A stretch of 64,000 nt of DNA from Acidobacteriota bacterium (GTDB taxonomy: Bacteria; Acidobacteriota; Terriglobia; Terriglobales; Acidobacteriaceae): positions 372,001 through 436,000 of the forward strand of contig JACPYL010000025.1 in assembly GCA_016196065.1 (NCBI GenBank), in the 5' to 3' direction. The notes beneath the pieces are model-generated. The model saw only the letters and a program-made list of their open reading frames with translations, ran no database searches and was not told the origin of the DNA. Positions 17,764 through 53,467 of this stretch are shown here, in pieces (positions within the stretch are counted from its first letter, which is position 1; each line of letters starts with the position of its first letter). The translations under genes and the position numbers were made by a program.

Positions 17764-19170
17764 TCACGCCTGCGCGTACTCCTTGAGCTTTCGATACAGA
17801 GTGGTTTTGCCAATCCCGAGCAGTCTGGCGGCCACTATCTTGTCTCCATTCACCTGCGCGAGTGCGTTCAGTATTGTCAACTTCTCCAATTCGGCCATGG
17901 GCAGGATTCCTCCATTTCCGGGTGAGGGAACGGCGAGCATTTCGGCGGGGGCGCTGCAGACGCGAGTGGGTAAGTCCCGCAACTGGATCTCGTCGGCACT
18001 CGAGAGCGCACAGGCCCGCTCCAGGCAGTTTTCCAGTTCACGGACATTGCCGGGCCAGTCATAGCTCAAGAGGATTTTGAGCGCTTCGTCGGAAATTGTT
18101 TTTACGGTGCCCGTGTCGCGACCCACGCGATCGAGCACATGCGCCACCAGCAGCGGGATATCCTGCCGTCGTTCGCGCAACGGTGGAATGCGTAAGGTCA
18201 GTACGTTCAGTCGGAAGAAAAGGTCGCGCCGGAAAGTACCCTGCGTGACCGAGATTTCAAGATCGTGATTGGTGGCGGCGAGAATCCGTACGTTGATGGG
18301 AATGCGCCGCACGCTGCCGACAGGGCGGATCTCTTTCTCCTGAATTGCCCGCAGCAGTTTTGCTTGCAGATCGACCGTAAGCTCGCCAATCTCGTCGAGG
18401 AAGATCGTGCCACCTTCGGCGACCGCCAGCAGTCCGTCTTTGGGATGGGTCGCACCGGTAAAGGCTCCTCGCACGTGGCCAAAAAGTTCGCTTTCAATCA
18501 GGGTTGGCACCAGAGATCCGCAGTCAACGGGAATAAATGGCTTGGTTCGATTGGGCCCCGTGAAGTGCAACGACTTGGCAACGAGTTCCTTGCCCGTTCC
18601 ACTTTCTCCTAAAATCAGCACCGGATGCGTGCTCTGACTGGCCTTGGCAATAATGCGGTACAGCTTTTCCATCTCCGGTGCGCGGCCAATGATGTTGCCA
18701 AATCCCTGGCGCGACTTGATGCTTTCGCGCAGCAGGCGATTTTCCGTCTTTAACTTCAGGTGTCCGGCAACACGCTCGAGAAGCAGTCGCAGTTCTTCGA
18801 GGCTGAACGGTTTGGTGACGTAGTCATACGCGCCATCTTTCATGGCCTGCACAGCGGACTGGATCGTTCCATGGCCCGTGACCACGATCACCAGCGCTCC
18901 AGGACTGTTCTTCCGGATGCTGTGCAGCGCCTCCAGTCCGCTCGATCCAGGCAGTTTCAAGTCGAGCAACACGACGTCGGCTCCACGGGACTCGAGCGCG
19001 CGATAAGCCTGCTCGGCAGACTCGGCAGTTTGTGGATCAAAGCCCAACGTCAACGCTACGTCGCGACACGCCTCGCGGACTGCCCGGTCGTCATCCACGA
19101 TCAGCAGTTGAAGGAAATTTGCGCCCTCGATTTGCGGAGGACGGCTGAGTGCAGGGTTGATGGCTACCAT
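17764..19170 (-). CDS. Sigma54-dependent response regulator, NtrC family (pair 1)
   Basis: The 468-aa product is receiver, AAA+ and Fis-type HTH in order. The phospho-acceptor Asp lies in VVLLDLKLPG. The AAA+ part has Walker A GESGTGKE, an intact sigma54 loop RGAFTGAT, and FLDEIGEL. The C-terminal HTH ends AARLLGIGKTTLYRKLKEY. Its start overlaps the kinase stop by 7 bp, making a tight kinase-regulator operon. It should activate sigma54 promoters when phosphorylated by the PAS kinase; targets are not evident nearby. Confidence 0.95.
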   Translation of the reverse strand: MVAINPALSRPPQIEGANFLQLLIVDDDRAVREACRDVALTLGFDPQTAESAEQAYRALESRGADVVLLDLKLPGSSGLEALHSIRKNSPGALVIVVTGHGTIQSAVQAMKDGAYDYVTKPFSLEELRLLLERVAGHLKLKTENRLLRESIKSRQGFGNIIGRAPEMEKLYRIIAKASQSTHPVLILGESGTGKELVAKSLHFTGPNRTKPFIPVDCGSLVPTLIESELFGHVRGAFTGATHPKDGLLAVAEGGTIFLDEIGELTVDLQAKLLRAIQEKEIRPVGSVRRIPINVRILAATNHDLEISVTQGTFRRDLFFRLNVLTLRIPPLRERRQDIPLLVAHVLDRVGRDTGTVKTISDEALKILLSYDWPGNVRELENCLERACALSSADEIQLRDLPTRVCSAPAEMLAVPSPGNGGILPMAELEKLTILNALAQVNGDKIVAARLLGIGKTTLYRKLKEYAQA

Positions 19171-20384
19171 GGCGAGTCTCCCTTGGGGTCAAGAACTTCG
19201 CGAATGCGCTTCGGGGGCACACAGCCGGCGATCTGTAAGGAGGTGTCCGGGATGACATCCAATGCCCGGAATGAAACCTGGATGCACGTGCCGTTTCCGA
19301 GTTCACTCTCTACATCGATCGTGCCACCTGATTCCGAGACGATGCGCTGCACTGTCGCCAGCCCCAGGCCGGTTCCCTGCCCCGGCGGCTTTGTGGTAAA
19401 CAAGGGCTCAAAGAGTCGGGCGCGGGTCTGCTCATCCATGCCACATCCGGTGTCTTCCACGAGAAGTGTGACCATGGCTGGGCCGACGTTGACGCCGGGG
19501 TTGACCCGAGTCCGAATGGTGATCCGTCCACCGCGTGGCATCGCGTCGCGCGCGTTCAAAACCAGGTTCAACAACACCTGACGCAACTGCCCGGGATCCG
19601 CGAGTACCGTCGGCAATTTCGGCGCGAGCACGGTTACAATTTCAATTTGTTCACCGATCAGCCGTCCAAGCAGGTCCTGTGTCGAGGTGACGAGGGCATT
19701 GATCGAAATCGGACGGGGCTGGATCACTTGTTTGCGAGCGATCGCCAATAGTTGATGGGTGATTGCAGCACCCTGCTCACCTGCCATGCGAATCTCTTCC
19801 ACATGTTGCAGGAGAGGAGTGTCGGCCCCGATTCCATCCGACAGCAGATCGCAATAGAGCAGGACTCCGGTCAGAAGATTGTTGAAGTCGTGCGCGATAC
19901 CCGCGGCCAGCCGGCCCATGACTTCCATCTTTTCCGCTTCCTGCGATTTTTCGGCGGCGCGCCGCTGCTCGCTGGAGTCCTCCAGCAAGGCGACTAGAAA
20001 TGCAGGATCGCCCGCACCGTCGTGCACGACCGACATCGTCAATCGAGCCCAGAAGTGAGTGCCATCCTTTCGGCGATAGCAACTTTCCTGTTTCAGCGAA
20101 TCATGCTTACCGGCATGTAATTCCGCGAGAGAGACTTCAGTCTCGTTAGAATCATCGAGTCGGAGTTCGCGAATTGGTAAGCCAGCCAACTCCTCGCGGT
20201 TGTAGCCCAGCATTGTCGCAAGAGCGGTATTGCCTTCCATCAGCCGGCCATCGAGCGTACAGGTTGCGATTCCGATCGCAGCCCCTTCGACTAGAGACGT
20301 CAATCGCAACTTCGGGTCGTGCGACAACGCATTACTTTGCTTGGCTCCGTTCGATCCGACCGTTGCCTTACCCGCAGCGCTCAT
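19164..20384 (-). CDS. PAS-domain sensor histidine kinase (pair 1)
   Basis: The 406-aa soluble kinase has no membrane segment. A PAS domain occupies about residues 25-155 (GAAIGIATCTLDGRLMEGN, YRRKDGTHFWARL). The DHp phospho-acceptor is in RLAAGIAHDFNNLL. The ATPase domain has LLNLVLNARDAM, VEDTGCGM and GQGTGLGLA. It should phosphorylate the overlapping NtrC-type regulator. ATG at 20384 is used with GGGG upstream; a TTG directly before it is less likely. The PAS signal is unknown but cytosolic. Confidence 0.93.
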   Translation of the reverse strand: MSAAGKATVGSNGAKQSNALSHDPKLRLTSLVEGAAIGIATCTLDGRLMEGNTALATMLGYNREELAGLPIRELRLDDSNETEVSLAELHAGKHDSLKQESCYRRKDGTHFWARLTMSVVHDGAGDPAFLVALLEDSSEQRRAAEKSQEAEKMEVMGRLAAGIAHDFNNLLTGVLLYCDLLSDGIGADTPLLQHVEEIRMAGEQGAAITHQLLAIARKQVIQPRPISINALVTSTQDLLGRLIGEQIEIVTVLAPKLPTVLADPGQLRQVLLNLVLNARDAMPRGGRITIRTRVNPGVNVGPAMVTLLVEDTGCGMDEQTRARLFEPLFTTKPPGQGTGLGLATVQRIVSESGGTIDVESELGNGTCIQVSFRALDVIPDTSLQIAGCVPPKRIREVLDPKGDSPW

Positions 20385-25491: not shown

Positions 25492-26883
25492 ATGACACAA
25501 GAACGCATACTCATCGTCGAGGACGAAGCCAACGAACGTACCGGCTTGGCCGAACTAGTTTCCAGCTGGGGCTATCGCACCGACACCGCCTGCGACGGCG
25601 TCGAAGCGATGGAAAAAGTTGCTGCTTTCTCGCCTTCCATCGTCATCACCGACATCAAGATGCCGCGCATGGACGGTATGGAATTGGTGGAAGAACTCTC
25701 CGACCTTTCCCAGTCGATCGCCGTGGTCATGGTGACGGCGCAGAAGACCACCGAGACTGCGTTTCACGCCGGGCGCCTCGGTGTTCAGGACTACATTGAA
25801 AAGCCGATCGATTTCCGACGCCTGCGCTCGATCCTCGGAAATATCGGAGAGATTCTCCAAACGCGCACGGAGAACGAAACCCTGCGGCGTTCACTACGCG
25901 ACAAGGGAGCCTTGGGCCGACTCGTGGGATCTTCTCCGAAGATGCTGGAGATTTTTCATCTCATCGAGATGGTTGCTCCCAGCACCGCGTCCGTACTCAT
26001 AACCGGAGCCAGCGGCACTGGGAAGGAGTTGGTCGCGCGCACGATTCACGATCTGAGTCCGCGCCGCAACAAGCCGTTCGTCCCGATCAATTGTGCGGCC
26101 ATCCCGGAAACTCTGATCGAAAGTGAAATCTTTGGCCACGAAAAAGGAGCGTTCACGGGCGCACTCGAACGCCGAACAGGCTGCTTCGAACTTGCCGAAG
26201 GTGGAACGTTGTTGCTGGATGAGATCGGCGAGATGCCGGTTGGTACGCAGGCGAAATTGCTGCGCGTGCTCGAAGACCACAAGGTGCGGCGCCTCGGCAG
26301 TAAAGCGGAAACCGCGGTGGATGTGCGCGTCCTGGCAGCGACCAACAAAATTCCTGATGATGCCGTTGCAACCGGAGAACTACGCCAGGATCTGTATTAC
26401 CGGCTGAATGTCTTCAATATCAACATGCCGTCTCTGCGGGAACATAAGGAAGACATCCGCGACCTGGTCAAGTCTTTACTCGCCGAGATGAGCAAGAAAC
26501 ACGAACGCAAAGTGGCCGACGTCAGCGAGGCGGTGCTCAACTTGTTTCAAAGTTACTCGTGGCCGGGGAATGTCCGTGAGTTACGCAACACTCTGGAGCG
26601 CGCGGTAATTGTCTGCGAAGGTGGCCTGGTCGAAACCAAGCACTTGCCTCCCGGCTTCGGACAGAGCGTTCGTCCGGCAGTTCACGATCCTGATGCCGTT
26701 CACCTGGGTGTGGGGACAACCGTAGAAGAGGCTGAAAAGCAGCTCATCCTCAAAACCCTGCAGGCGACGACAAACAACAAGACGCGGGCCGCTGAAATTC
26801 TTGGGATCAGCCTGAAAACTTTGCACAACAAGCTCAAGGAATACGGTCGGGCAACAGATTCGGTGTTGACGGCGGAGGAATAG
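25492..26883 (+). CDS. Sigma54-dependent response regulator, NtrC family (pair 2)
   Basis: The 463-aa product is receiver (phospho-Asp in IVITDIKMPRMDG), AAA+ (Walker A GASGTGKE, sigma54 loop KGAFTGAL, LLDEIGEM) and Fis-type HTH (AAEILGISLKTLHNKLKEYG). All key motifs are intact. The cognate kinase follows 93 bp downstream on the same strand, then a small secreted protein, forming a probable three-gene operon. Confidence 0.95.
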   Translation: MTQERILIVEDEANERTGLAELVSSWGYRTDTACDGVEAMEKVAAFSPSIVITDIKMPRMDGMELVEELSDLSQSIAVVMVTAQKTTETAFHAGRLGVQDYIEKPIDFRRLRSILGNIGEILQTRTENETLRRSLRDKGALGRLVGSSPKMLEIFHLIEMVAPSTASVLITGASGTGKELVARTIHDLSPRRNKPFVPINCAAIPETLIESEIFGHEKGAFTGALERRTGCFELAEGGTLLLDEIGEMPVGTQAKLLRVLEDHKVRRLGSKAETAVDVRVLAATNKIPDDAVATGELRQDLYYRLNVFNINMPSLREHKEDIRDLVKSLLAEMSKKHERKVADVSEAVLNLFQSYSWPGNVRELRNTLERAVIVCEGGLVETKHLPPGFGQSVRPAVHDPDAVHLGVGTTVEEAEKQLILKTLQATTNNKTRAAEILGISLKTLHNKLKEYGRATDSVLTAEE

Positions 26884-26976
26884 CGAGAACTGAGTCGTTA
26901 GCTCCTTATTGAGATGGCATTCTGAGGATCACTATTCCTTAGCGAACTCACAGTCAGCAACGGCCGAAGAACTCCC

Positions 26977-28860
26977 ATGAGCCGAAAAGCCATTATCGTG
27001 TTCGCGATCACGACGCTTATCACGGCGCTGGTGTTCGGATTTTCCTGGGTGTACCTCTCGCAACTGCTTCGGCAACGCCTGTTGTGGGCGGACGAGACGG
27101 CCTCGATGCTCACGCGGCAGTTGGAGTACACCGCTTCCAAAGCCGTCCCCGATCTCACCAGCACGCGTGTCGACACCTCGAATCCGAAAGCCGTACGCTC
27201 CGCCGTCTCGGACTACCTTCAGAACGACGCGAATCTCAACGATATGCTGGAATCGGTGGTCGGGAATTCTCAGATCATCTACGACGCCGCCATCGTCGAT
27301 CCCGCAGGCATCGCGATTCTTGACACGAACCCCGCATTGAACGGTAAGCCGATTCCACCCCGCTCGGACCTGATCGTTTTGCGAGATGCCGGCTTTCGCC
27401 GCCAGTTGCGTCTGCTCTACAACCTGGGCTCGGTGTACGACGTCAGCATCCCGTTGCAATTGGGCGGACAGCCCTTCGGCAGCGTGCGCGTAGGAGTTGC
27501 AACCGTTTTCCTGCGCAACGAACTGACGCCGAGGCTGCAGCAGGCGGCTTTTTTTTGCGTGGTCGCGATTTTTTGTTCGCTAGTGCTCTCCGCGGTTATC
27601 TCCAACCTCGCGCTCGGCCCTCTTAAACGAATTGCCGCGAATCTGGATAGCGCCAGCGCGGGCGGTACCGAGATGCTTCCCGCCGACGACTCGCCCGCCG
27701 ATGAAGTCGGCCTCGTATCCCTGAAGATCGCGCACCTGGGGCGCCAGATCCGTGACACCAACCAGATTTTCTCAGCGCTGAAAGACAACGTTGAACAGGT
27801 CATGGCTAATCTTCAAGACGGGCTCATGCTCTTTACACCTGACTCGCGGGTGGTGCTGGTGAGCGCATCTGCCGAGCAGTTCCTGGGCCGTCCCCGGCAC
27901 GAAATTCTGGGTCGAAGCGCACAAGAAATTTTTTCCGACGGTTCACCTCTCGGCGCGGTTGTGCTGCCAGCCTTCACGGCACGAAGGAACCTTGTGCAAT
28001 ACGAGTTCGATGCCGCCGACAAGCGACGGGTGCAAGTTTCACTCGATTTCATCCAACAGAAAGAAGCTTCGATCGGCGCGCTGCTCATCATGCGGGATCT
28101 CGAGTCGGTGCATCGAATCGAAGACGAAATCGAAATTTCGCGCCGCCTTTCCGCCAGTGGGCACAAGACGAAAGAAGTGGCCCACGAAGTCAAGAATCCG
28201 ATGAATGCGATCGTGCTTCATCTTCAACTTTTGCAGGACAAAATGCAGAGTTCTGATCCTGAGACACGCCGCCACATGGCAGTAATCGGGGACGAGATCC
28301 ACCGCCTCGATCGGGTTGTACAAACGCTGGTGGATTTCACGCGCCCGCGCGACCTTCGCGAACAGGACGTCGATATGCGGAAGATCCTGGAGGACGTTTC
28401 AATTCTCGCTGCTCCCGATGCCGAACGGCAGCGTGCGCTCCTGGTCCGGGAGTTTTCGCACGAACAACTCATCGTGCGGGTGGATTCCGACCTCATGAAG
28501 CAAGCAGTACTGAATCTTGTACTAAACGGACTTCAGGCTATGGACCAAGGTGGAACCTTGACGCTCGCGGCCCGGCGCGAAGGCGACATGGTGGTCGCCG
28601 AAGTGCGCGACCAGGGCCGCGGAATTCCGCCGGAGTTGCAGGAAAAAGTCTTCCAGCTCTACTTCACGACGAAAAAAGATAAGGGCGGAACTGGGATTGG
28701 ATTGGCGCAAGCGTCCCAGTATGTGGAATGGCATCACGGGAAGGTAGATTTCGAATCGAAAGTGGGGGTGGGCACGACTTTCCGGCTGCGATTGCCGGCG
28801 GTCAACGGAAATCGTATGACCTCGAAGGATGTTACTGCCGCGTCGGAACGAGTGGGATAG
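26977..28860 (+). CDS. Membrane sensor histidine kinase (pair 2)
   Basis: The 627-aa product has TM1 at about residues 5-28, a periplasmic sensor region of about 150 residues with cache-like character, and TM2 at about 190-213. HAMP-like and PAS regions follow (VMANLQDGLMLFTPDSRVVLV). The DHp has EVAHEVKNPMNAI and the ATPase domain LNLVLNGLQAM, RDQGRGIP and GGTGIGLA. It should sense an extracytoplasmic signal and phosphorylate the adjacent NtrC-type regulator. Confidence 0.93.
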   Translation: MSRKAIIVFAITTLITALVFGFSWVYLSQLLRQRLLWADETASMLTRQLEYTASKAVPDLTSTRVDTSNPKAVRSAVSDYLQNDANLNDMLESVVGNSQIIYDAAIVDPAGIAILDTNPALNGKPIPPRSDLIVLRDAGFRRQLRLLYNLGSVYDVSIPLQLGGQPFGSVRVGVATVFLRNELTPRLQQAAFFCVVAIFCSLVLSAVISNLALGPLKRIAANLDSASAGGTEMLPADDSPADEVGLVSLKIAHLGRQIRDTNQIFSALKDNVEQVMANLQDGLMLFTPDSRVVLVSASAEQFLGRPRHEILGRSAQEIFSDGSPLGAVVLPAFTARRNLVQYEFDAADKRRVQVSLDFIQQKEASIGALLIMRDLESVHRIEDEIEISRRLSASGHKTKEVAHEVKNPMNAIVLHLQLLQDKMQSSDPETRRHMAVIGDEIHRLDRVVQTLVDFTRPRDLREQDVDMRKILEDVSILAAPDAERQRALLVREFSHEQLIVRVDSDLMKQAVLNLVLNGLQAMDQGGTLTLAARREGDMVVAEVRDQGRGIPPELQEKVFQLYFTTKKDKGGTGIGLAQASQYVEWHHGKVDFESKVGVGTTFRLRLPAVNGNRMTSKDVTAASERVG

Positions 28861-47944: not shown

Positions 47945-48109
47945 GCTGCAATCCGCTTCGTAGGTCCTCCGTCGCGCTAACTCCAAGCCCTGTAACAAAT
48001 CGCACACCCTCTCGATTTTGTCACTGACGTGCACTTGATGAGGATGAAACCAGCGCAGAGCATGCGTCGGATTCGCAGAGCAGCGGCATTGAGCGTGCGA
48101 GGAGGATCT

Positions 48110-48769
48110 ATGTCCATTCTGGTGGTACTGCTGATGTTCCTTCTGATTATCAGCGTCCGATATTTTATTGACCCAAAAGTTCGGCCCTCACTGGAAACGG
48201 AAATCGTTGCCCGACCGCAGCAGCCTTTGGTTAAGCGCGAGTACGGGTTCGATGTCCCGCAGGGCTATTGCTTTCATCCCGGACACATGTGGGCCATGAA
48301 GCAAGGCGCAGATGATGCGCGAGTGGGAATCGACAAGTTCGTCACCAACCTCATGGGAACGATCGACCACATTGATGTGCGCGGAGCCGATCACTGGGTC
48401 CGTCAAGGACAGAAGCTCATCACCATCAGCGGTGGCGGCACCAGCATCGATCTTCTCTCGCCGGTCGAAGGTGTAATCACGGCGATCAACAACGATGTCC
48501 TGCAAGATCCAAGTCTGCTGATGAAGGACCCTTACGACAACGCCTGGATCGCGGTCGTGAAGTCTCCCGATCTCCAGTTAAATCAGCGCAATCTCGTACA
48601 GGGCGGGATGGTGCCGCTCTGGATGCAGCACAACCTGATCCGGCTGAATGCGATGCTATCGCCCACTCCTGCACTGGCGCAGGATGGCGGCGGCCCGATC
48701 TGCGGATTGCTGCCGAAGCTTTCTCCAGAATTGCGACAGAAAGTAGCCGAAGAGTTCTTCCTGTCCTAA
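48110..48769 (+). CDS. Membrane-anchored GcvH-like protein lacking the lipoyl lysine
   Basis: The 219-aa product has one N-terminal membrane helix (residues 1-20: MSILVVLLMFLLIISVRYFI). A GcvH-type lipoyl-carrier fold follows: GHMWAMKQGADDARVGIDKF (59-78), then GQKLITISGG and SIDLLSPVEGVITAINNDVL, then DPYDNAWIAVVKSP. In glycine-cleavage H-proteins the lipoyl lysine sits four residues before the Asp of ESVKAASD; here that position is Gly110, so lipoylation as in GcvH looks impossible. A 40-residue tail with PALAQDGGG follows. GGAGG 4 nt upstream sets ATG 48110. It is first of three genes with a ferredoxin and an NrfD/HybB protein, not with gcvT/gcvP. Confidence 0.82.
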   Translation: MSILVVLLMFLLIISVRYFIDPKVRPSLETEIVARPQQPLVKREYGFDVPQGYCFHPGHMWAMKQGADDARVGIDKFVTNLMGTIDHIDVRGADHWVRQGQKLITISGGGTSIDLLSPVEGVITAINNDVLQDPSLLMKDPYDNAWIAVVKSPDLQLNQRNLVQGGMVPLWMQHNLIRLNAMLSPTPALAQDGGGPICGLLPKLSPELRQKVAEEFFLS

Positions 48770-48800
48770 ATAGAACCCGGCTACGGAAAGGATACGAGTT

Positions 48801-49553
48801 ATGGCAACCACAGAAGCAATCCTGGTCGATATCACGAAGTGCATCGGATGCCGGAGCTGCGAGCAGGCGTGCAAGCAGATCCACGGCTTCCCGATGGATA
48901 CCGAGGCCAAGCTTTCTCCCACCGCACTCACGGTGATTGAAGAGCGTGGTGACCGATTCACGCGCAGGATGTGCATGCACTGTCAGGATCCGGCATGCGC
49001 ATCAGCATGCCTAGTCGGCGCGCTGAAGAAGACCTCGGCTGGTCCGGTCACTTATGACGGCGCCAAATGTATCGGCTGCCGCTACTGCCTGGTGGCGTGC
49101 CCGTTCAGCGTGCCTCGTTACGAATGGACGAAGCTCGCTCCCTATGTGAAGAAATGCGATATGTGCGCCGGGCGTTTGGCGAACGGCCAGCAGCCAGCCT
49201 GTGTCGAGGCATGCCCCGTGCAGGCTTCCATCGCAGGCAATCGCGAAGATATTTTGCAGGAAGCGCAACGTCGCATCGTCAACAATTCGAAATACGTCAA
49301 CCATATCTACGGCAGCGACGAAGCGGGCGGAACTTCGATCTTCTTCATTTCTGACGTGCCGTTCGAAAAACTTGGATTCGCTGCCGCTCCGAAGCAACCG
49401 CTGCCGATGTTGACAGCGAGTGCGCTGGGCGAAGGGCCCACGGTGATCCTGCTGGGTGGCGCCGTGCTCGGCGGCCTGAACTGGATCACACGACGCCGCG
49501 CGGAAGTCGCGCTCGCCGAAGCCCGCGAAAATTCTACACAGGAAAGAGGTTGA
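48801..49553 (+). CDS. Four-cluster ferredoxin-like protein with C-terminal membrane helix (HybA/DmsB-like)
   Basis: The 250-aa protein carries 16 cysteines in four 4Fe-4S motifs: CIGCRSCEQAC (14-24), CMHCQDPACASAC, CIGCRYCLVACP and CDMCAGRLANGQQPACVEACP, the pattern of HybA/NrfC/DmsB electron-transfer subunits. A C-terminal hydrophobic helix (about 212-228, TVILLGGAVLGGLNWI) should anchor it. There is no Tat leader, unlike periplasmic HybA, so the clusters probably face the cytosol. It is 31 bp after the GcvH-like gene and 3 bp before the NrfD gene, a tight operon that points to one complex. Confidence 0.9.
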   Translation: MATTEAILVDITKCIGCRSCEQACKQIHGFPMDTEAKLSPTALTVIEERGDRFTRRMCMHCQDPACASACLVGALKKTSAGPVTYDGAKCIGCRYCLVACPFSVPRYEWTKLAPYVKKCDMCAGRLANGQQPACVEACPVQASIAGNREDILQEAQRRIVNNSKYVNHIYGSDEAGGTSIFFISDVPFEKLGFAAAPKQPLPMLTASALGEGPTVILLGGAVLGGLNWITRRRAEVALAEARENSTQERG

Positions 49554-49556
49554 GCC

Positions 49557-50729
49557 ATGACCACCACTCGATTTCCAAAGATCAGTCTCTGGCGCACAAT
49601 CGTTGCGTTGATTTTCGCTGCTGGTATCTATTCGATGTATGCGCGATTCGCGCTCGGCTTTCAAGCTTCCACCAACCTTACTGATCCTCAGCCCTGGGGC
49701 CTCTGGGTTGGATTAGGAACGCTGTGCGGCGTTGGCTTATCGGCCGGCGGGTTCGCGATTGCCGCAGCCGTGTACCTTCTGGGCTTTGAGCGCTACCGCC
49801 CGATCTTGCGGACGGCCGTACTCATCTCGTTCCTGGGATATTCCACCGTCATGATCGGCATGCTGTACGAACTCGGGCTGCCCTGGAGAATCTGGCACCC
49901 GATTTTCATGTGGAACCGGCATTCCGTACTGTTTGAGGTTTCCTGGTGCGTGATGCTTTACAGCTCGGTGCTGGCACTGGAGTTCTCTCCTGCGCTGGTA
50001 GAGAAAATTCCCTGGAAGAAAGCGCGCGAGTTATACCTGCGCTGGCATCACAGCATTCTGATCGCACTGGTGGTAGTCGGCACACTGCTTTCTTCCATGC
50101 ATCAATCATTCCTCGGCGGACTGTACCTGATCACCAAAGGCAGACTCGATCCGCTCTGGTACACACCGCACCTGACCACGATGTTTTATCTGTCCGCGAT
50201 CCCGGCTGGATTGGCAGTCACCATCATGGCGATCTACCTGTGCGTGCGCTCGCTGAACGTTCGTGTGGACATGAATATCCTGAGCGACGTAAGCTGGGTA
50301 ATTGCACCACTGCTCGGAGTCTATGGCTTGTTCCGGGCGATTGATCTGATTAACCGCGATGCCCTGCCCTACCTCTGGATGTGGCGCGAAGAAACACTCT
50401 CCTTCTGGCTGGAGATCGCACTGCTGGTGATTGCACCTGTGATCCTGCTCAACATGGACAAAGTGCGTAATGTTCCGCAGAACTTGTACTGGGTCTGCGC
50501 GCTGGTCGTGATGGGCTTCATGACCAACCGGCTGAATGTCTCCATCACTGGCTTGCAGGCAACCTCGGGGACGTACTACATTCCGAAGTGGACAGAGTTC
50601 GCAGCCACTTTCGCAACCATCACTGCTGCCGTCGTGGCCTTCCGTTACGCCGTGATCTACCTGGATATCTTGCCGAGGAAGACACCACCGCAACAGCTGA
50701 TGGTTATGGGGCAACCCGGTAACGCATAA
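49557..50729 (+). CDS. NrfD/HybB-family quinone-interacting membrane protein
   Basis: The 390-aa protein has ten predicted membrane helices, beginning WRTIVALIFAAGIYSMYARF and ending FAATFATITAAVVAFRYAVI. Hallmarks of HybB/NrfD-type quinol oxidase/reductase subunits include GLWVGLGTLCGVGLSAGGFA and the conserved helix with VLFEVSWCVMLYSS. Such subunits exchange electrons between quinones and an adjacent iron-sulfur protein without heme. ATG at 49557 lies 3 bp after the ferredoxin stop. No hydrogenase, molybdopterin enzyme or cytochrome c is in the operon, leaving the electron donor or acceptor unknown. Confidence 0.9.
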   Translation: MTTTRFPKISLWRTIVALIFAAGIYSMYARFALGFQASTNLTDPQPWGLWVGLGTLCGVGLSAGGFAIAAAVYLLGFERYRPILRTAVLISFLGYSTVMIGMLYELGLPWRIWHPIFMWNRHSVLFEVSWCVMLYSSVLALEFSPALVEKIPWKKARELYLRWHHSILIALVVVGTLLSSMHQSFLGGLYLITKGRLDPLWYTPHLTTMFYLSAIPAGLAVTIMAIYLCVRSLNVRVDMNILSDVSWVIAPLLGVYGLFRAIDLINRDALPYLWMWREETLSFWLEIALLVIAPVILLNMDKVRNVPQNLYWVCALVVMGFMTNRLNVSITGLQATSGTYYIPKWTEFAATFATITAAVVAFRYAVIYLDILPRKTPPQQLMVMGQPGNA

Positions 50730-50746
50730 ACTCGCATGCACTGCTC

Positions 50747-50774
50747 AGCCCCGGGCGAAGAGTCCGGGGCTTTT
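50747..50774 (+). terminator. Intrinsic terminator of the GcvH-like/NrfD operon
   Basis: Stem AGCCCCGG (50747-50754) / CCGGGGCT (50764-50771), 9-nt loop, then TTTT. It lies 17 bp after the NrfD stop and separates it from the convergent regulator gene. Confidence 0.85.
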
Positions 50775-50829: not shown

Positions 50830-52212
50830 CTATTCCGACGACTTCCCTTTAAGCCTTCGCTGCAGTGAGGTGGGATGAATCCCGAGAATGCGCGATGCCT
50901 GCGTCTTGTTATTTCGAGTCGCAGCGAGAACCTGATCGATGTAGTGGTCCTCCATCTCCCGCAGGCTCAGGAACTGTTCGCCAGTCGGAGAAATGTCGAC
51001 CACCGAAAAGGGTTCTCCCGCTCTTTTCTCCTCATGCTGGTCACGAATTTCTTCCGGAAGGTGGTCCGCTTCTACTTCTCCTTCGGGCGTCAGGATCATG
51101 GTGCGCTCAATCACATTTCGCAGTTCGCGGATGTTGCCGGGCCAGTGATATTGCTCCAGCAAGTCTGCGGCTCCATGACTGAATCCAGTGAAGTTTTTCT
51201 TTAGCTCGTGGTTCAAGTGCTGGAGAATCTCCAGTGCCAACGGCACAATATCTTCGCGACGCTCGCGCAACGGAGGAATGTAAAGCTGTACCACATTCAG
51301 GCGGTAATAGAGGTCTTCACGAAACCGGCCTTGCGTGATGGCATTGCGCAGTTGGTCGTTGGTGGCAGCGACCAGACGGATATCCACTTTGATCGTGGCC
51401 GTTCCTCCCAGCCGCATGAACGTTCCTTCCTCAAGGACACGCAGCATCTTCGCCTGCACGCTCGCGGACATGTTTGCAATTTCGTCGAGGAACAAGGTGC
51501 CGCCACTGGCCCGCTCCAGCAGCCCTTCCTTCCGGCGCCGCGCATCGGTGAAGGCTCCCGGTTCGTAGCCGAACAACTCGCTCTCCAACAGCGCATCGGG
51601 AAGAGCGGCACAGTTGAGTTCCAGCAAGGGCATCGCGCTGCGCGGACTCGCATAGTGAATGGCACGAGCAAGCACTCCTTTGCCGGTGCCGCTCTCGCCC
51701 TGGATCAGAATCGTAGTGTGATCGCTTTCCGCGGCCTTGCGCGCGACCTCCAGCATCTTGATCGTGACCTGATTGTGCGTGATCACGCGTCCGAAGTTGT
51801 AGCGCCCCTTTTCGGATTCTACGGAATCCCGCACGCGCACTCGTAACGTCAGCACTTCTTCTGCCCGCTGCAGGACCGCCATCATGTCATCGCGCGGGAA
51901 GGGCTTGACGAGGTAGTCGAACGCACCAAGTTTCATGGCTTCTACGGCTCGCTCGACCATGTGATAAGCGCTCATCATGACGACGATTGCAGTCGGATTC
52001 GCCTGTTTTATCTGGCGCAACACTTCGACGCCATCGATACCAGGAAGGACGATGTCCAGCAAGATAAGGTCCGGCTTTTCTTCGTGAAAAAGCTTCAGGC
52101 CATCTTCACCCGACAAGGCCGTGAACACTTCGAATCCATCCTGGCGCAAACCGCGCGAGATGGTTCGCAGCGTCAGCTCTTCGTCGTCGATGATGAGTGC
52201 GGAATAGGGCAT
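50830..52212 (-). CDS. Sigma54-type response regulator with GAFTDA variant (pair 3)
   Basis: The 460-aa product is receiver (phospho-Asp53 in LILLDIVLPGID), AAA+ with Walker A GESGTGKG, TLFLDEIANM, and a Fis-type HTH (ASRILGIHPTSLQRRL). The sigma54-contacting loop reads GAFTDA (219-224) rather than GAFTGA, so coupling to sigma54 may be altered; GAFTDA occurs in some natural activators. It sits 15 bp after its kinase and converges on the GcvH-like/NrfD operon, which it may control. Confidence 0.93.
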   Translation of the reverse strand: MPYSALIIDDEELTLRTISRGLRQDGFEVFTALSGEDGLKLFHEEKPDLILLDIVLPGIDGVEVLRQIKQANPTAIVVMMSAYHMVERAVEAMKLGAFDYLVKPFPRDDMMAVLQRAEEVLTLRVRVRDSVESEKGRYNFGRVITHNQVTIKMLEVARKAAESDHTTILIQGESGTGKGVLARAIHYASPRSAMPLLELNCAALPDALLESELFGYEPGAFTDARRRKEGLLERASGGTLFLDEIANMSASVQAKMLRVLEEGTFMRLGGTATIKVDIRLVAATNDQLRNAITQGRFREDLYYRLNVVQLYIPPLRERREDIVPLALEILQHLNHELKKNFTGFSHGAADLLEQYHWPGNIRELRNVIERTMILTPEGEVEADHLPEEIRDQHEEKRAGEPFSVVDISPTGEQFLSLREMEDHYIDQVLAATRNNKTQASRILGIHPTSLQRRLKGKSSE

Positions 52213-52227
52213 GGTGATTGGGAATCG

Positions 52228-53235
52228 TTACACTACGATTTCCGACTGTTCTTTCGACTTGTGTGACTCCTCCTGCCGGATGGGCAATGTAACGGTCACA
52301 GTGGTTCCACGATTCAACACGCTGTCGATTCGAATGTCGCCATTATTTCTGCGGATGTACGTACGGCTGATACTCAACCCCAGGCCCGTGCCCTTGCCTA
52401 ATTTGGTCGTAAAAAATGGTTCGAAGATGTGGGGCAGAATCTCCGGAGAAATACCGCAGCCGGTGTCATGCACGCGGATTTCAATATTTTCTTCGAAGGG
52501 CAGCTTGCTCGCTGACACGACAATACGGCCACCGTTGTCCGTGGCTTCTGCCGCGTTGATGAGCAGGTTCATCAGGACCTGCGAAAGCTGGTTGGAGTCC
52601 ACAAGAATATTAGGCAGGTCTTCGGGGACTCGATTCTCGGCGTGTTTGCCGCGGAGTGCTGGTTGCCCTTCGAGAAAGCCGAGCGTATCGGCAATCAGAC
52701 GATGCAGGTTGAGGTTACTCAATACCAGTGGGCCGGGACGAGCATAGTTGACGAGCCCGCGTAGAGTAGCCGCAATACGCTTCGTGCCCGCGATGCATTG
52801 CTCGACCTCCCACCGCTGCTCGGGATCGGTGGCGCCTTTTAGCTCCAGCTCCAGATGCGAGAGGATGCCAAGCAGTGGATTGTTGATCCCGTGAGCCGCT
52901 CCCAAAGCCAACTGAGCGAGCGTGGAATATTTTTCGTATTCCGCCAATTGAGCCTGGAACTGAAACTTCTCTTTGTTCAATTCCCGATCTTCAAACAGGC
53001 GGCGAAAGAGTTCGTTCTGAGCCGTGTTGCGCTCACGCTCCAACTGCTGGGTCGCTTCCTTCGCTTGTTTCAGGGATGCGCAGGCTCGTTCCCACTCCCG
53101 GCGCTGAAGGCGCCACATGACGAACATCACTACTAGCCCTGCGACTACAATCGAAAACAAGTAGCGTGCCGCCGGCAACTCGAAGTTTCCGGATGTTTCC
53201 AGGACGGGCAACACGCTCCCAGTCAAGTTCAGCAC
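52228..53235 (-). CDS. Sensor histidine kinase (pair 3)
   Basis: The 335-aa kinase has one membrane helix near the N-terminus (YLFSIVVAGLVVMFVMW). A coiled coil follows (about 50-105), then the DHp site ALGAAHGINNPLLGI and ATPase motifs LMNLLINAAEA, HDTGCGISP and GKGTGLGLS. It has almost no periplasmic sensor domain, so the signal is probably internal or within the membrane. GTG at 53235, with GAGG 7 nt upstream, is chosen; the frame stays open up to a TTG at 53352 but that extension has no recognisable features. Confidence 0.88.
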   Translation of the reverse strand: MLNLTGSVLPVLETSGNFELPAARYLFSIVVAGLVVMFVMWRLQRREWERACASLKQAKEATQQLERERNTAQNELFRRLFEDRELNKEKFQFQAQLAEYEKYSTLAQLALGAAHGINNPLLGILSHLELELKGATDPEQRWEVEQCIAGTKRIAATLRGLVNYARPGPLVLSNLNLHRLIADTLGFLEGQPALRGKHAENRVPEDLPNILVDSNQLSQVLMNLLINAAEATDNGGRIVVSASKLPFEENIEIRVHDTGCGISPEILPHIFEPFFTTKLGKGTGLGLSISRTYIRRNNGDIRIDSVLNRGTTVTVTLPIRQEESHKSKEQSEIVV

Positions 53236-53467
53236 ACTCGTGCCTCTGTCCAGTGCGGATGCATCCTTCTTACAACATGGAACGGATCGTCCGGAATCGC
53301 AGTGATCGGTATCACAGCGCAGGGTGCCCGGAGGGTTGGAATACCCCTCCAAGTCTTTGACAACAGGCGTCTAATTCAGGAGATGGACACCACGAGTGCA
53401 ATCACGTACGGGTCAAGATTGATGCAACAACGATCACCGGTGGGAGATCACAGGCAGGAAGAGTGTT

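What the first reader, a model, noticed from the sequence alone, without database searches (positions are those of the whole stretch)
48110..50774. GcvH-like / four-cluster ferredoxin / NrfD operon without a catalytic oxidoreductase subunit
Three tightly spaced genes encode a membrane-anchored H-protein-like fold, a 16-Cys ferredoxin with a C-terminal anchor and no Tat leader, and a ten-helix HybB/NrfD quinone protein, ending at an intrinsic terminator. HybA/HybB-type pairs normally serve a hydrogenase or molybdopterin enzyme, none of which is nearby. The H-protein fold in place of the usual partner suggests a self-contained quinone-linked electron-transfer module with an unknown soluble partner. 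It is the strongest candidate here for an undescribed system.
Basis: partly seen in the sequence, partly recalled or inferred. Interest (0 to 1): 0.78.

Follow-up and report, generated by a model that had tools for sequence, protein, structure and literature searches.

The report
Acidobacterial H-protein/ferredoxin/NrfD redox-signalling module
Three neighbouring genes encode a membrane-anchored look-alike of a glycine-metabolism protein plus an iron-sulphur/quinone pair, and across the soil phylum Acidobacteriota this trio keeps travelling with a two-component signalling system instead of an enzyme, which suggests a widespread, apparently undescribed electron-transfer module under direct signalling control.

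Summary
The trio (GcvH-like 48110-48769, four-cluster ferredoxin 48801-49553, HybB/HmcC-type NrfD 49557-50729, terminator 50747-50771) is real. No catalytic subunit is nearby, and this genome, rated 100% complete, has no [NiFe] hydrogenase hit other than complex I.

Standalone ferredoxin-NrfD pairs are already described (Hmc; PMC10924467). What is new is the partner set. A TM-anchored H-protein-fold protein that has lost the lipoyl lysine (Gly110 here) co-occurs with this NrfD type in 70 of 75 genomes of a 297-genome Acidobacteriota sample. It is repeatedly clustered with a histidine kinase (usually with a CxxCH heme motif) and a sigma-54 response regulator, often with an M54 peptidase. In 19 loci the order is ferredoxin-NrfD-kinase-[TM-receiver-GcvH], the last three domains fused, which places the GcvH domain in the cytoplasm beside a phospho-receiver. 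Consensus-like sigma-54 promoters precede one GcvH-like clade in 51 of 81 loci (3 expected). The window trio has its own conserved promoter element and an adjacent kinase/regulator pair.

Best reading: a quinone-linked electron-transfer module with a dedicated two-component system, the degenerate H-protein being its cytoplasmic regulatory adaptor. Whether it conducts or senses is unresolved.

The parts
48018..48034 (+). conserved promoter/operator element TTGTCACTGACGTGCAC upstream of the trio
   Evidence: TTTTGYCMNNNNCGTGCACT-type element aligned upstream of the GcvH-like start in most of 17 window-type loci (absent in L055/L056); the only exact match in the 5.5 Mb genome
48110..48769 (+). 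GcvH-like protein (GcvHL): N-terminal TM helix, H-protein domain without the lipoyl Lys, conserved C-terminal DGG...EFFL tail
   Evidence: PF01597 E 2.6e-16; AlphaFold/Foldseek; Lys replaced by Gly110; tail conservation
48801..49553 (+). HmcB/HybA-like ferredoxin for four [4Fe-4S] clusters, no Tat leader, C-terminal TM helix followed by RRR
49557..50729 (+). HmcC/HybB-like NrfD quinone-interacting membrane protein, 10 hydrophobic segments
50747..50771 (+). intrinsic terminator hairpin
   Evidence: 10 bp stem followed by a T-rich tail; z -3.97
50830..52212 (-). sigma-54-type response regulator (receiver, AAA+, Fis HTH); phospho-acceptor Asp present, GAFTDA instead of GAFTGA
   Evidence: linked to the trio in about 8 of 18 window-type loci although gene order differs
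52228..53352 (-). histidine kinase with one TM helix and no recognisable sensor domain (start codon uncertain); H-box AAHGINNPL
   Evidence: found next to the regulator in L043-L046, L051, L053

Best explanation
The trio is the membrane part of a two-component-controlled, quinone-linked electron-transfer module. NrfD exchanges electrons with the (mena)quinone pool and passes them to or from the four-cluster ferredoxin, as in Hmc/HybAB/QrcCD. The GcvH-like protein is a degenerate H-protein that can no longer carry lipoate; it is anchored by its N-terminal helix, lies on the cytoplasmic face, and serves as the regulatory adaptor between the redox pair and the adjacent histidine kinase/response regulator. 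Module redox state or abundance is thereby tied to phospho-signalling. SHOWN by computation: gene content, fold, loss of the lipoyl Lys, repeated clustering, REC-GcvH fusion, sigma-54 promoters on the paralogous clade. INFERRED: physical contact between GcvHL and NrfD/ferredoxin, direction of electron flow, effect of phosphorylation.
For: Co-occurrence of GcvHL with HmcC-type NrfD: 70 of 75 against 23 of 222 genomes (Fisher p 3e-41, not corrected for phylogeny). Ferredoxin + NrfD in the GcvHL locus: 15/18 (window-type), 27/35 (phylum sample), 38/73 (named C27-type loci, many on truncated contigs); Fd + NrfD + HK + RR all present in 34 of those 73, the regulator there 64-81% identical to the C8 copy. 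TM-REC-GcvH fusion: Pfam PF00072 + PF01597 in three loci, 16 more with the same four-gene order and the receiver Asp. Sigma-54 sites at about -65 to -82 of C27-type GcvHL in 51/81 loci, 3.0 expected, including loci where GcvHL stands alone. HK/RR stay with the window-type trio although the order is rearranged (upstream in L051/L053, downstream in the window and L043-L046). The window HK has no sensor domain of its own.
Against: Clustering does not prove contact. HK and sigma-54 regulators are common: two further C8RR-like genes of similar score lie in this window. About half of the window-type loci have no HK/RR nearby (8 of 18 do). The window trio lacks a canonical sigma-54 site, and its regulator has GAFTDA. 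In one branch GcvHL accompanies a hydrogenase rather than a two-component system.
Confidence: 0.5

Rival explanations
1. Pure sensor: the ferredoxin/NrfD pair is not a respiratory branch but the redox antenna of the two-component system, reporting the quinone pool to a kinase that lacks (window) or carries (paralogue) a heme sensor domain; GcvHL relays the state to the cytoplasm.
For: Catalytic subunit missing in almost all loci; sensorless single-TM kinase in the window clade; heme-motif kinases in the paralogous module; REC-GcvH fusion with no sigma-54 regulator found in the locus.
Against: Sigma-54 promoters in front of GcvHL, and of the ferredoxin in some loci, suggest the module is an output of the system. 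Cytochrome c partners in some loci (c7 fused to NrfD in L138, Qrc-like set in L114/L072) look respiratory.
Confidence: 0.2
2. Conventional respiratory module with an unlinked periplasmic or cytoplasmic catalytic partner; GcvHL is an accessory subunit and the kinase/regulator only an ordinary neighbouring regulator.
For: Ferredoxin and NrfD resemble subunits of enzymes (FdnH, HybAB, Hmc). Leaderless C-tail ferredoxins are thought to be exported with a Tat-bearing partner (PMC10924467). The genome encodes several molybdoproteins elsewhere.
Against: No catalytic gene is linked in the surveyed loci except one derived hydrogenase branch; no [NiFe] hydrogenase in this genome; the REC-GcvH fusion is not explained.
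Confidence: 0.17
3. Cytoplasmic electron entry: GcvHL is a docking dummy for enzymes that recognise H-protein or lipoyl domains (e.g. dihydrolipoyl dehydrogenase) or HdrA-type proteins, and the trio is a soluble-donor:quinone oxidoreductase.
For: GcvHL domain is cytoplasmic (REC fusion); leaderless ferredoxin; Vhu/HdrA2 hydrogenase linked in L056; in four relatives the trio sits convergent with gcvPA-gcvPB (gcvH seen in three).
Against: NrfD and the ferredoxin C-tail keep the charge pattern of the Tat-exported relatives, pointing to a periplasmic ferredoxin; the gcv neighbourhood occurs in one sub-branch only; lipoyl Lys lost.
Confidence: 0.1

Closest known systems
Hmc complex HmcB/HmcC (Desulfovibrio)
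   Same: best NCBIfam models for ferredoxin and NrfD; tail-anchored ferredoxin with HybB-like quinone protein
   Different: scores below the curated cut-offs; no HmcA, D, E or F; GcvHL and a two-component system instead; ferredoxin without leader
HybA/HybB of hydrogenase 2
   Same: ferredoxin with C-terminal TM and 10-segment NrfD-family protein
   Different: below cut-off; no hydrogenase in the genome; no Tat leader
Standalone tail-anchored ferredoxin/HybB-like modules (PMC10924467)
   Same: Fd-NrfD pair without an enzyme, and a leaderless C-tail variant of the ferredoxin
   Different: those come with octaheme cytochromes or a Tat-bearing [FeFe] hydrogenase; the passages read mention no GcvH-like protein and report no conserved flanking genes
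QrcABCD menaquinone reductase
   Same: a Qrc-like set (cytochrome, Tat-signal molybdopterin-like subunit, Fd, NrfD) flanked by two GcvHL genes in L114/L072
   Different: window trio has no QrcA or QrcB
Glycine-cleavage H-protein GcvH
   Same: fold (1onl) and DPY..GW signature
   Different: no lipoyl Lys, TM anchor, conserved DGG...EFF tail, separate clade in the tree; below GcvH cut-offs
Streptococcal GcvH-L (5a35)
   Same: H-protein-like paralogue of the same fold
   Different: weaker structural hit (E 4e-7); no shared gene context tested

Membership tests
Glycine-cleavage GcvH | lipoylatable Lys in the ES.KA loop | tested here: not met
   Gly110; column is G in 77 and K in 3 of 108 GcvHL sequences
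Glycine-cleavage GcvH | H-protein fold | tested here: met
Glycine-cleavage GcvH | curated GcvH model score | tested here: not met
   62 of 117 and 58 of 116 bits required
HybA/HybB hydrogenase-2 electron transfer pair | partner [NiFe] hydrogenase | tested here: not met
   only the complex I locus hits PF00374
HybA/HybB hydrogenase-2 electron transfer pair | Tat leader on the ferredoxin | tested here: not met
   absent in the window and its clade, present in another clade
Hmc complex | HmcA multiheme cytochrome and HmcD-F | tested here: not met
   flanking genes by Pfam: none
NrfD family | NrfD domain and multi-helix topology | tested here: met
   PF03916 over cut-off; 10 hydrophobic segments
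NrfD family | quinone reduction/oxidation | not testable with these tools
   needs biochemistry
Two-component-linked GcvHL/Fd/NrfD module (proposed here) | HK and sigma-54 RR in the locus | tested here: met
   50830-53352
Two-component-linked GcvHL/Fd/NrfD module (proposed here) | canonical sigma-54 promoter in front | tested here: not met
   none near the trio; a different conserved element instead

The most novel reading that the evidence does not exclude
A new class of phospho-regulated redox complex: a degenerate H-protein, in one bacterial family fused directly to a receiver domain, acts as the phosphorylation-responsive gate or relay of a quinone-linked ferredoxin/NrfD complex, so that a histidine kinase controls (or is controlled by) electron flow directly rather than only through transcription.
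Probability: 0.3. Interest if true: 0.82.

Novelty: new variant of a known kind. Interest (0 to 1): 0.62.

Why it matters
HybA/HybB-type pairs are usually treated as wiring for enzymes. Here the pair is kept across a phylum of abundant soil bacteria with no enzyme attached, but with a kinase, a regulator and a repurposed H-protein. If true, it gives a concrete system for testing how quinone redox state is coupled to two-component signalling, and it assigns a role to a family of H-protein-fold proteins that cannot carry lipoate and would be annotated as glycine-cleavage H-proteins. The REC-GcvH fusion makes phosphotransfer directly testable in vitro.

Tried and rejected
(1) Linked hydrogenase or molybdopterin enzyme: none beside the trio; PF00374 only at the complex I locus; molybdoproteins elsewhere are a DMSO-reductase type II enzyme, an FdhF/NasC-like protein, a YdeP-like protein, NuoG and an ACIII ActB-like protein. 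(2) Functional lipoyl H-protein: rejected by loss of Lys. (3) Canonical sigma-54 promoter before the trio: none; matches in the window are at chance level. (4) Regulon of the trio's own element: one exact genomic match, so no further targets. (6) Literature: no paper in the held library with GcvH + NrfD + ferredoxin, or archaemetzincin + NrfD. (7) Topology of the leaderless ferredoxin: not resolved; C-tail and NrfD charges say periplasmic, lack of a leader says cytoplasmic.

Full report
OBSERVATION. The three ORFs exist at the stated coordinates: GcvH-like (GcvHL) 48110-48769, ferredoxin 48801-49553, NrfD 49557-50729, 31 and 3 bp apart, followed by a strong terminator hairpin. The window is G000:C25:372001-436000 of a 5.5 Mb genome rated 100% complete. 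Named relatives of the second GcvHL copy are mostly Terriglobia/Acidobacteriaceae/Sulfotelmatobacter MAGs.

ANATOMY. GcvHL has an N-terminal TM helix, a linker, an H-protein domain and a C-terminal DGG...EFFL tail conserved in the family. The fold is confirmed: 1onl, target TM-score 0.92. The lipoyl lysine is Gly110 (pairwise alignment to 1onl); at this column the family has G in 77 and K in 3 of 108 sequences, and no Cys is conserved. The ferredoxin carries the Cys set for four [4Fe-4S] clusters and no leader; its model is nearest to FdnH. NrfD is of the HmcC/HybB type.

GENOME CONTEXT. The same genome has a second ferredoxin-NrfD pair (C8) with a small cytochrome c (one CxxCH), a histidine kinase with one CxxCH, a sigma-54 response regulator and an M54-type peptidase, and a second GcvHL standing apart from it (C27). 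No [NiFe] hydrogenase was found.

SURVEY. In window-type loci the ferredoxin and NrfD lie with GcvHL in 15 of 18. HK + sigma-54 RR neighbour the trio in about eight of them, upstream in the L051/L053 arrangement and downstream (convergent) in the window and L043-L046. In a 35-locus phylum sample, 27 have Fd + NrfD with GcvHL, 28 an HK and 22 the M54 gene; in 73 named C27-type loci the counts are 38, 39 and 40, many contigs being truncated. In L058, L059, L069, L070 and, with other spacing, L072, GcvHL lies with Fd-NrfD-HK-RR-M54, so the split seen in this genome is likely derived (inference). Over 297 genomes GcvHL and this NrfD type co-occur in 70, GcvHL alone in 5, NrfD alone in 23 (thresholds E 1e-26 and 1e-100 chosen by me; no correction for phylogeny).

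FUSION. In L108, L111 and L112 GcvHL is preceded, in one polypeptide, by a TM helix and a receiver domain (PF00072 E about 1e-27 to 1e-29, PF01597 E about 1e-18 to 1e-20). Sixteen further genomes, all of the family of L111 and L112, have the order Fd-NrfD-HK-[TM-REC-GcvHL] with the receiver motif FTDLKM. A receiver must meet its kinase in the cytoplasm (established knowledge), so the GcvHL domain is cytoplasmic; this agrees with the positive residues after the TM helix of most members.

REGULATION. A -24/-12-like sequence lies about 65-82 bp upstream of C27-type GcvHL starts in most of 51 hits among 81 distinct upstreams; 3.0 were expected from a 3.65% background. It is present even where GcvHL stands alone, so the GcvHL gene looks like a sigma-54 target. 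A subset of C8 ferredoxin genes has one at about -48 to -65. The window clade lacks it but has another element, TTTTGYCMNNNNCGTGCACT, with one exact match in the genome. Its regulator has GAFTDA instead of GAFTGA and its kinase AAHG instead of AAHE, while the C8 pair has the canonical forms.

EXCEPTIONS THAT INFORM. In L056 (and fragment L055), nested inside the window-type clade (tree), GcvHL follows NrfD in a run with a Vhu/Mvh-like [NiFe] hydrogenase, a VhuG-like subunit, an HdrA2-like protein and HycI. GcvHL therefore stays with NrfD when the rest changes, and no HmcB-type ferredoxin gene was recognised there, so NrfD is its most likely physical partner (inference). L138 fuses NrfD to an extra TM helix and a c7-type cytochrome. 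L114/L072 hold a Qrc-like set flanked by two GcvHL genes. In L047-L050 the trio is convergent with gcvPA/gcvPB.

TOPOLOGY. Ferredoxins fall into a Tat-leader type and a leaderless type. Both mostly keep a C-tail with positive residues after it, and their NrfDs share one charge pattern, which favours a periplasmic ferredoxin in both. Leaderless C-tail ferredoxins next to HybB-like proteins are described as probable hitchhikers on a Tat-bearing partner (PMC10924467), but no such partner is visible here. This is an open point.

MECHANISM AND VERDICT. See Best explanation. The Fd-NrfD electron-transfer core is known. The degenerate GcvH, its receiver fusion and the two-component system as usual company were not found in the held literature. 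Hence new variant of a known kind, interest 0.62.

Noticed in passing
L108:7925-9049(-), L111:7751-8875(-), L112:7937-9031(-), L251-L266: TM-receiver-GcvH fusion proteins, always after ferredoxin-NrfD-histidine kinase.
   Followed up: yes
L006:14999-15547 and module loci: M54 (archaemetzincin-like) peptidase gene conserved behind the kinase/regulator pair of the paralogous module, absent from the window-type loci; role unknown.
   Followed up: partly
L056:8459-16038(-): Vhu/Mvh-like [NiFe] hydrogenase, HdrA2-like protein, NrfD and GcvH-like in one run: an unusual cytoplasmic hydrogenase-HdrA-NrfD combination.
   Followed up: partly
window 50830-52212 (-): Sigma-54 regulator with GAFTDA for GAFTGA, beside an operon whose promoter element TTGYCM-N4-CGTGCAC resembles a divergent -24/-12 site.
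   Followed up: no
window 52228-53352 (-): Histidine kinase with one TM, no sensor domain and H-box AAHG instead of AAHE, conserved in L043-L046.
   Followed up: partly
L116:8001-8855(-): A different H-protein with an intact lipoyl motif (ESSKA) fused to an N-terminal Cys-containing domain.
   Followed up: no
L114:1765-2811, L139:11285-12088, L140:7583-8734: GcvH-like proteins with Cys-rich N-terminal regions (C...C..C motifs), possible metal sites.
   Followed up: no
window 17767-20039 (-) and 25492-28854 (+): Two further sigma-54 regulator/histidine kinase pairs in the same window.
   Followed up: no
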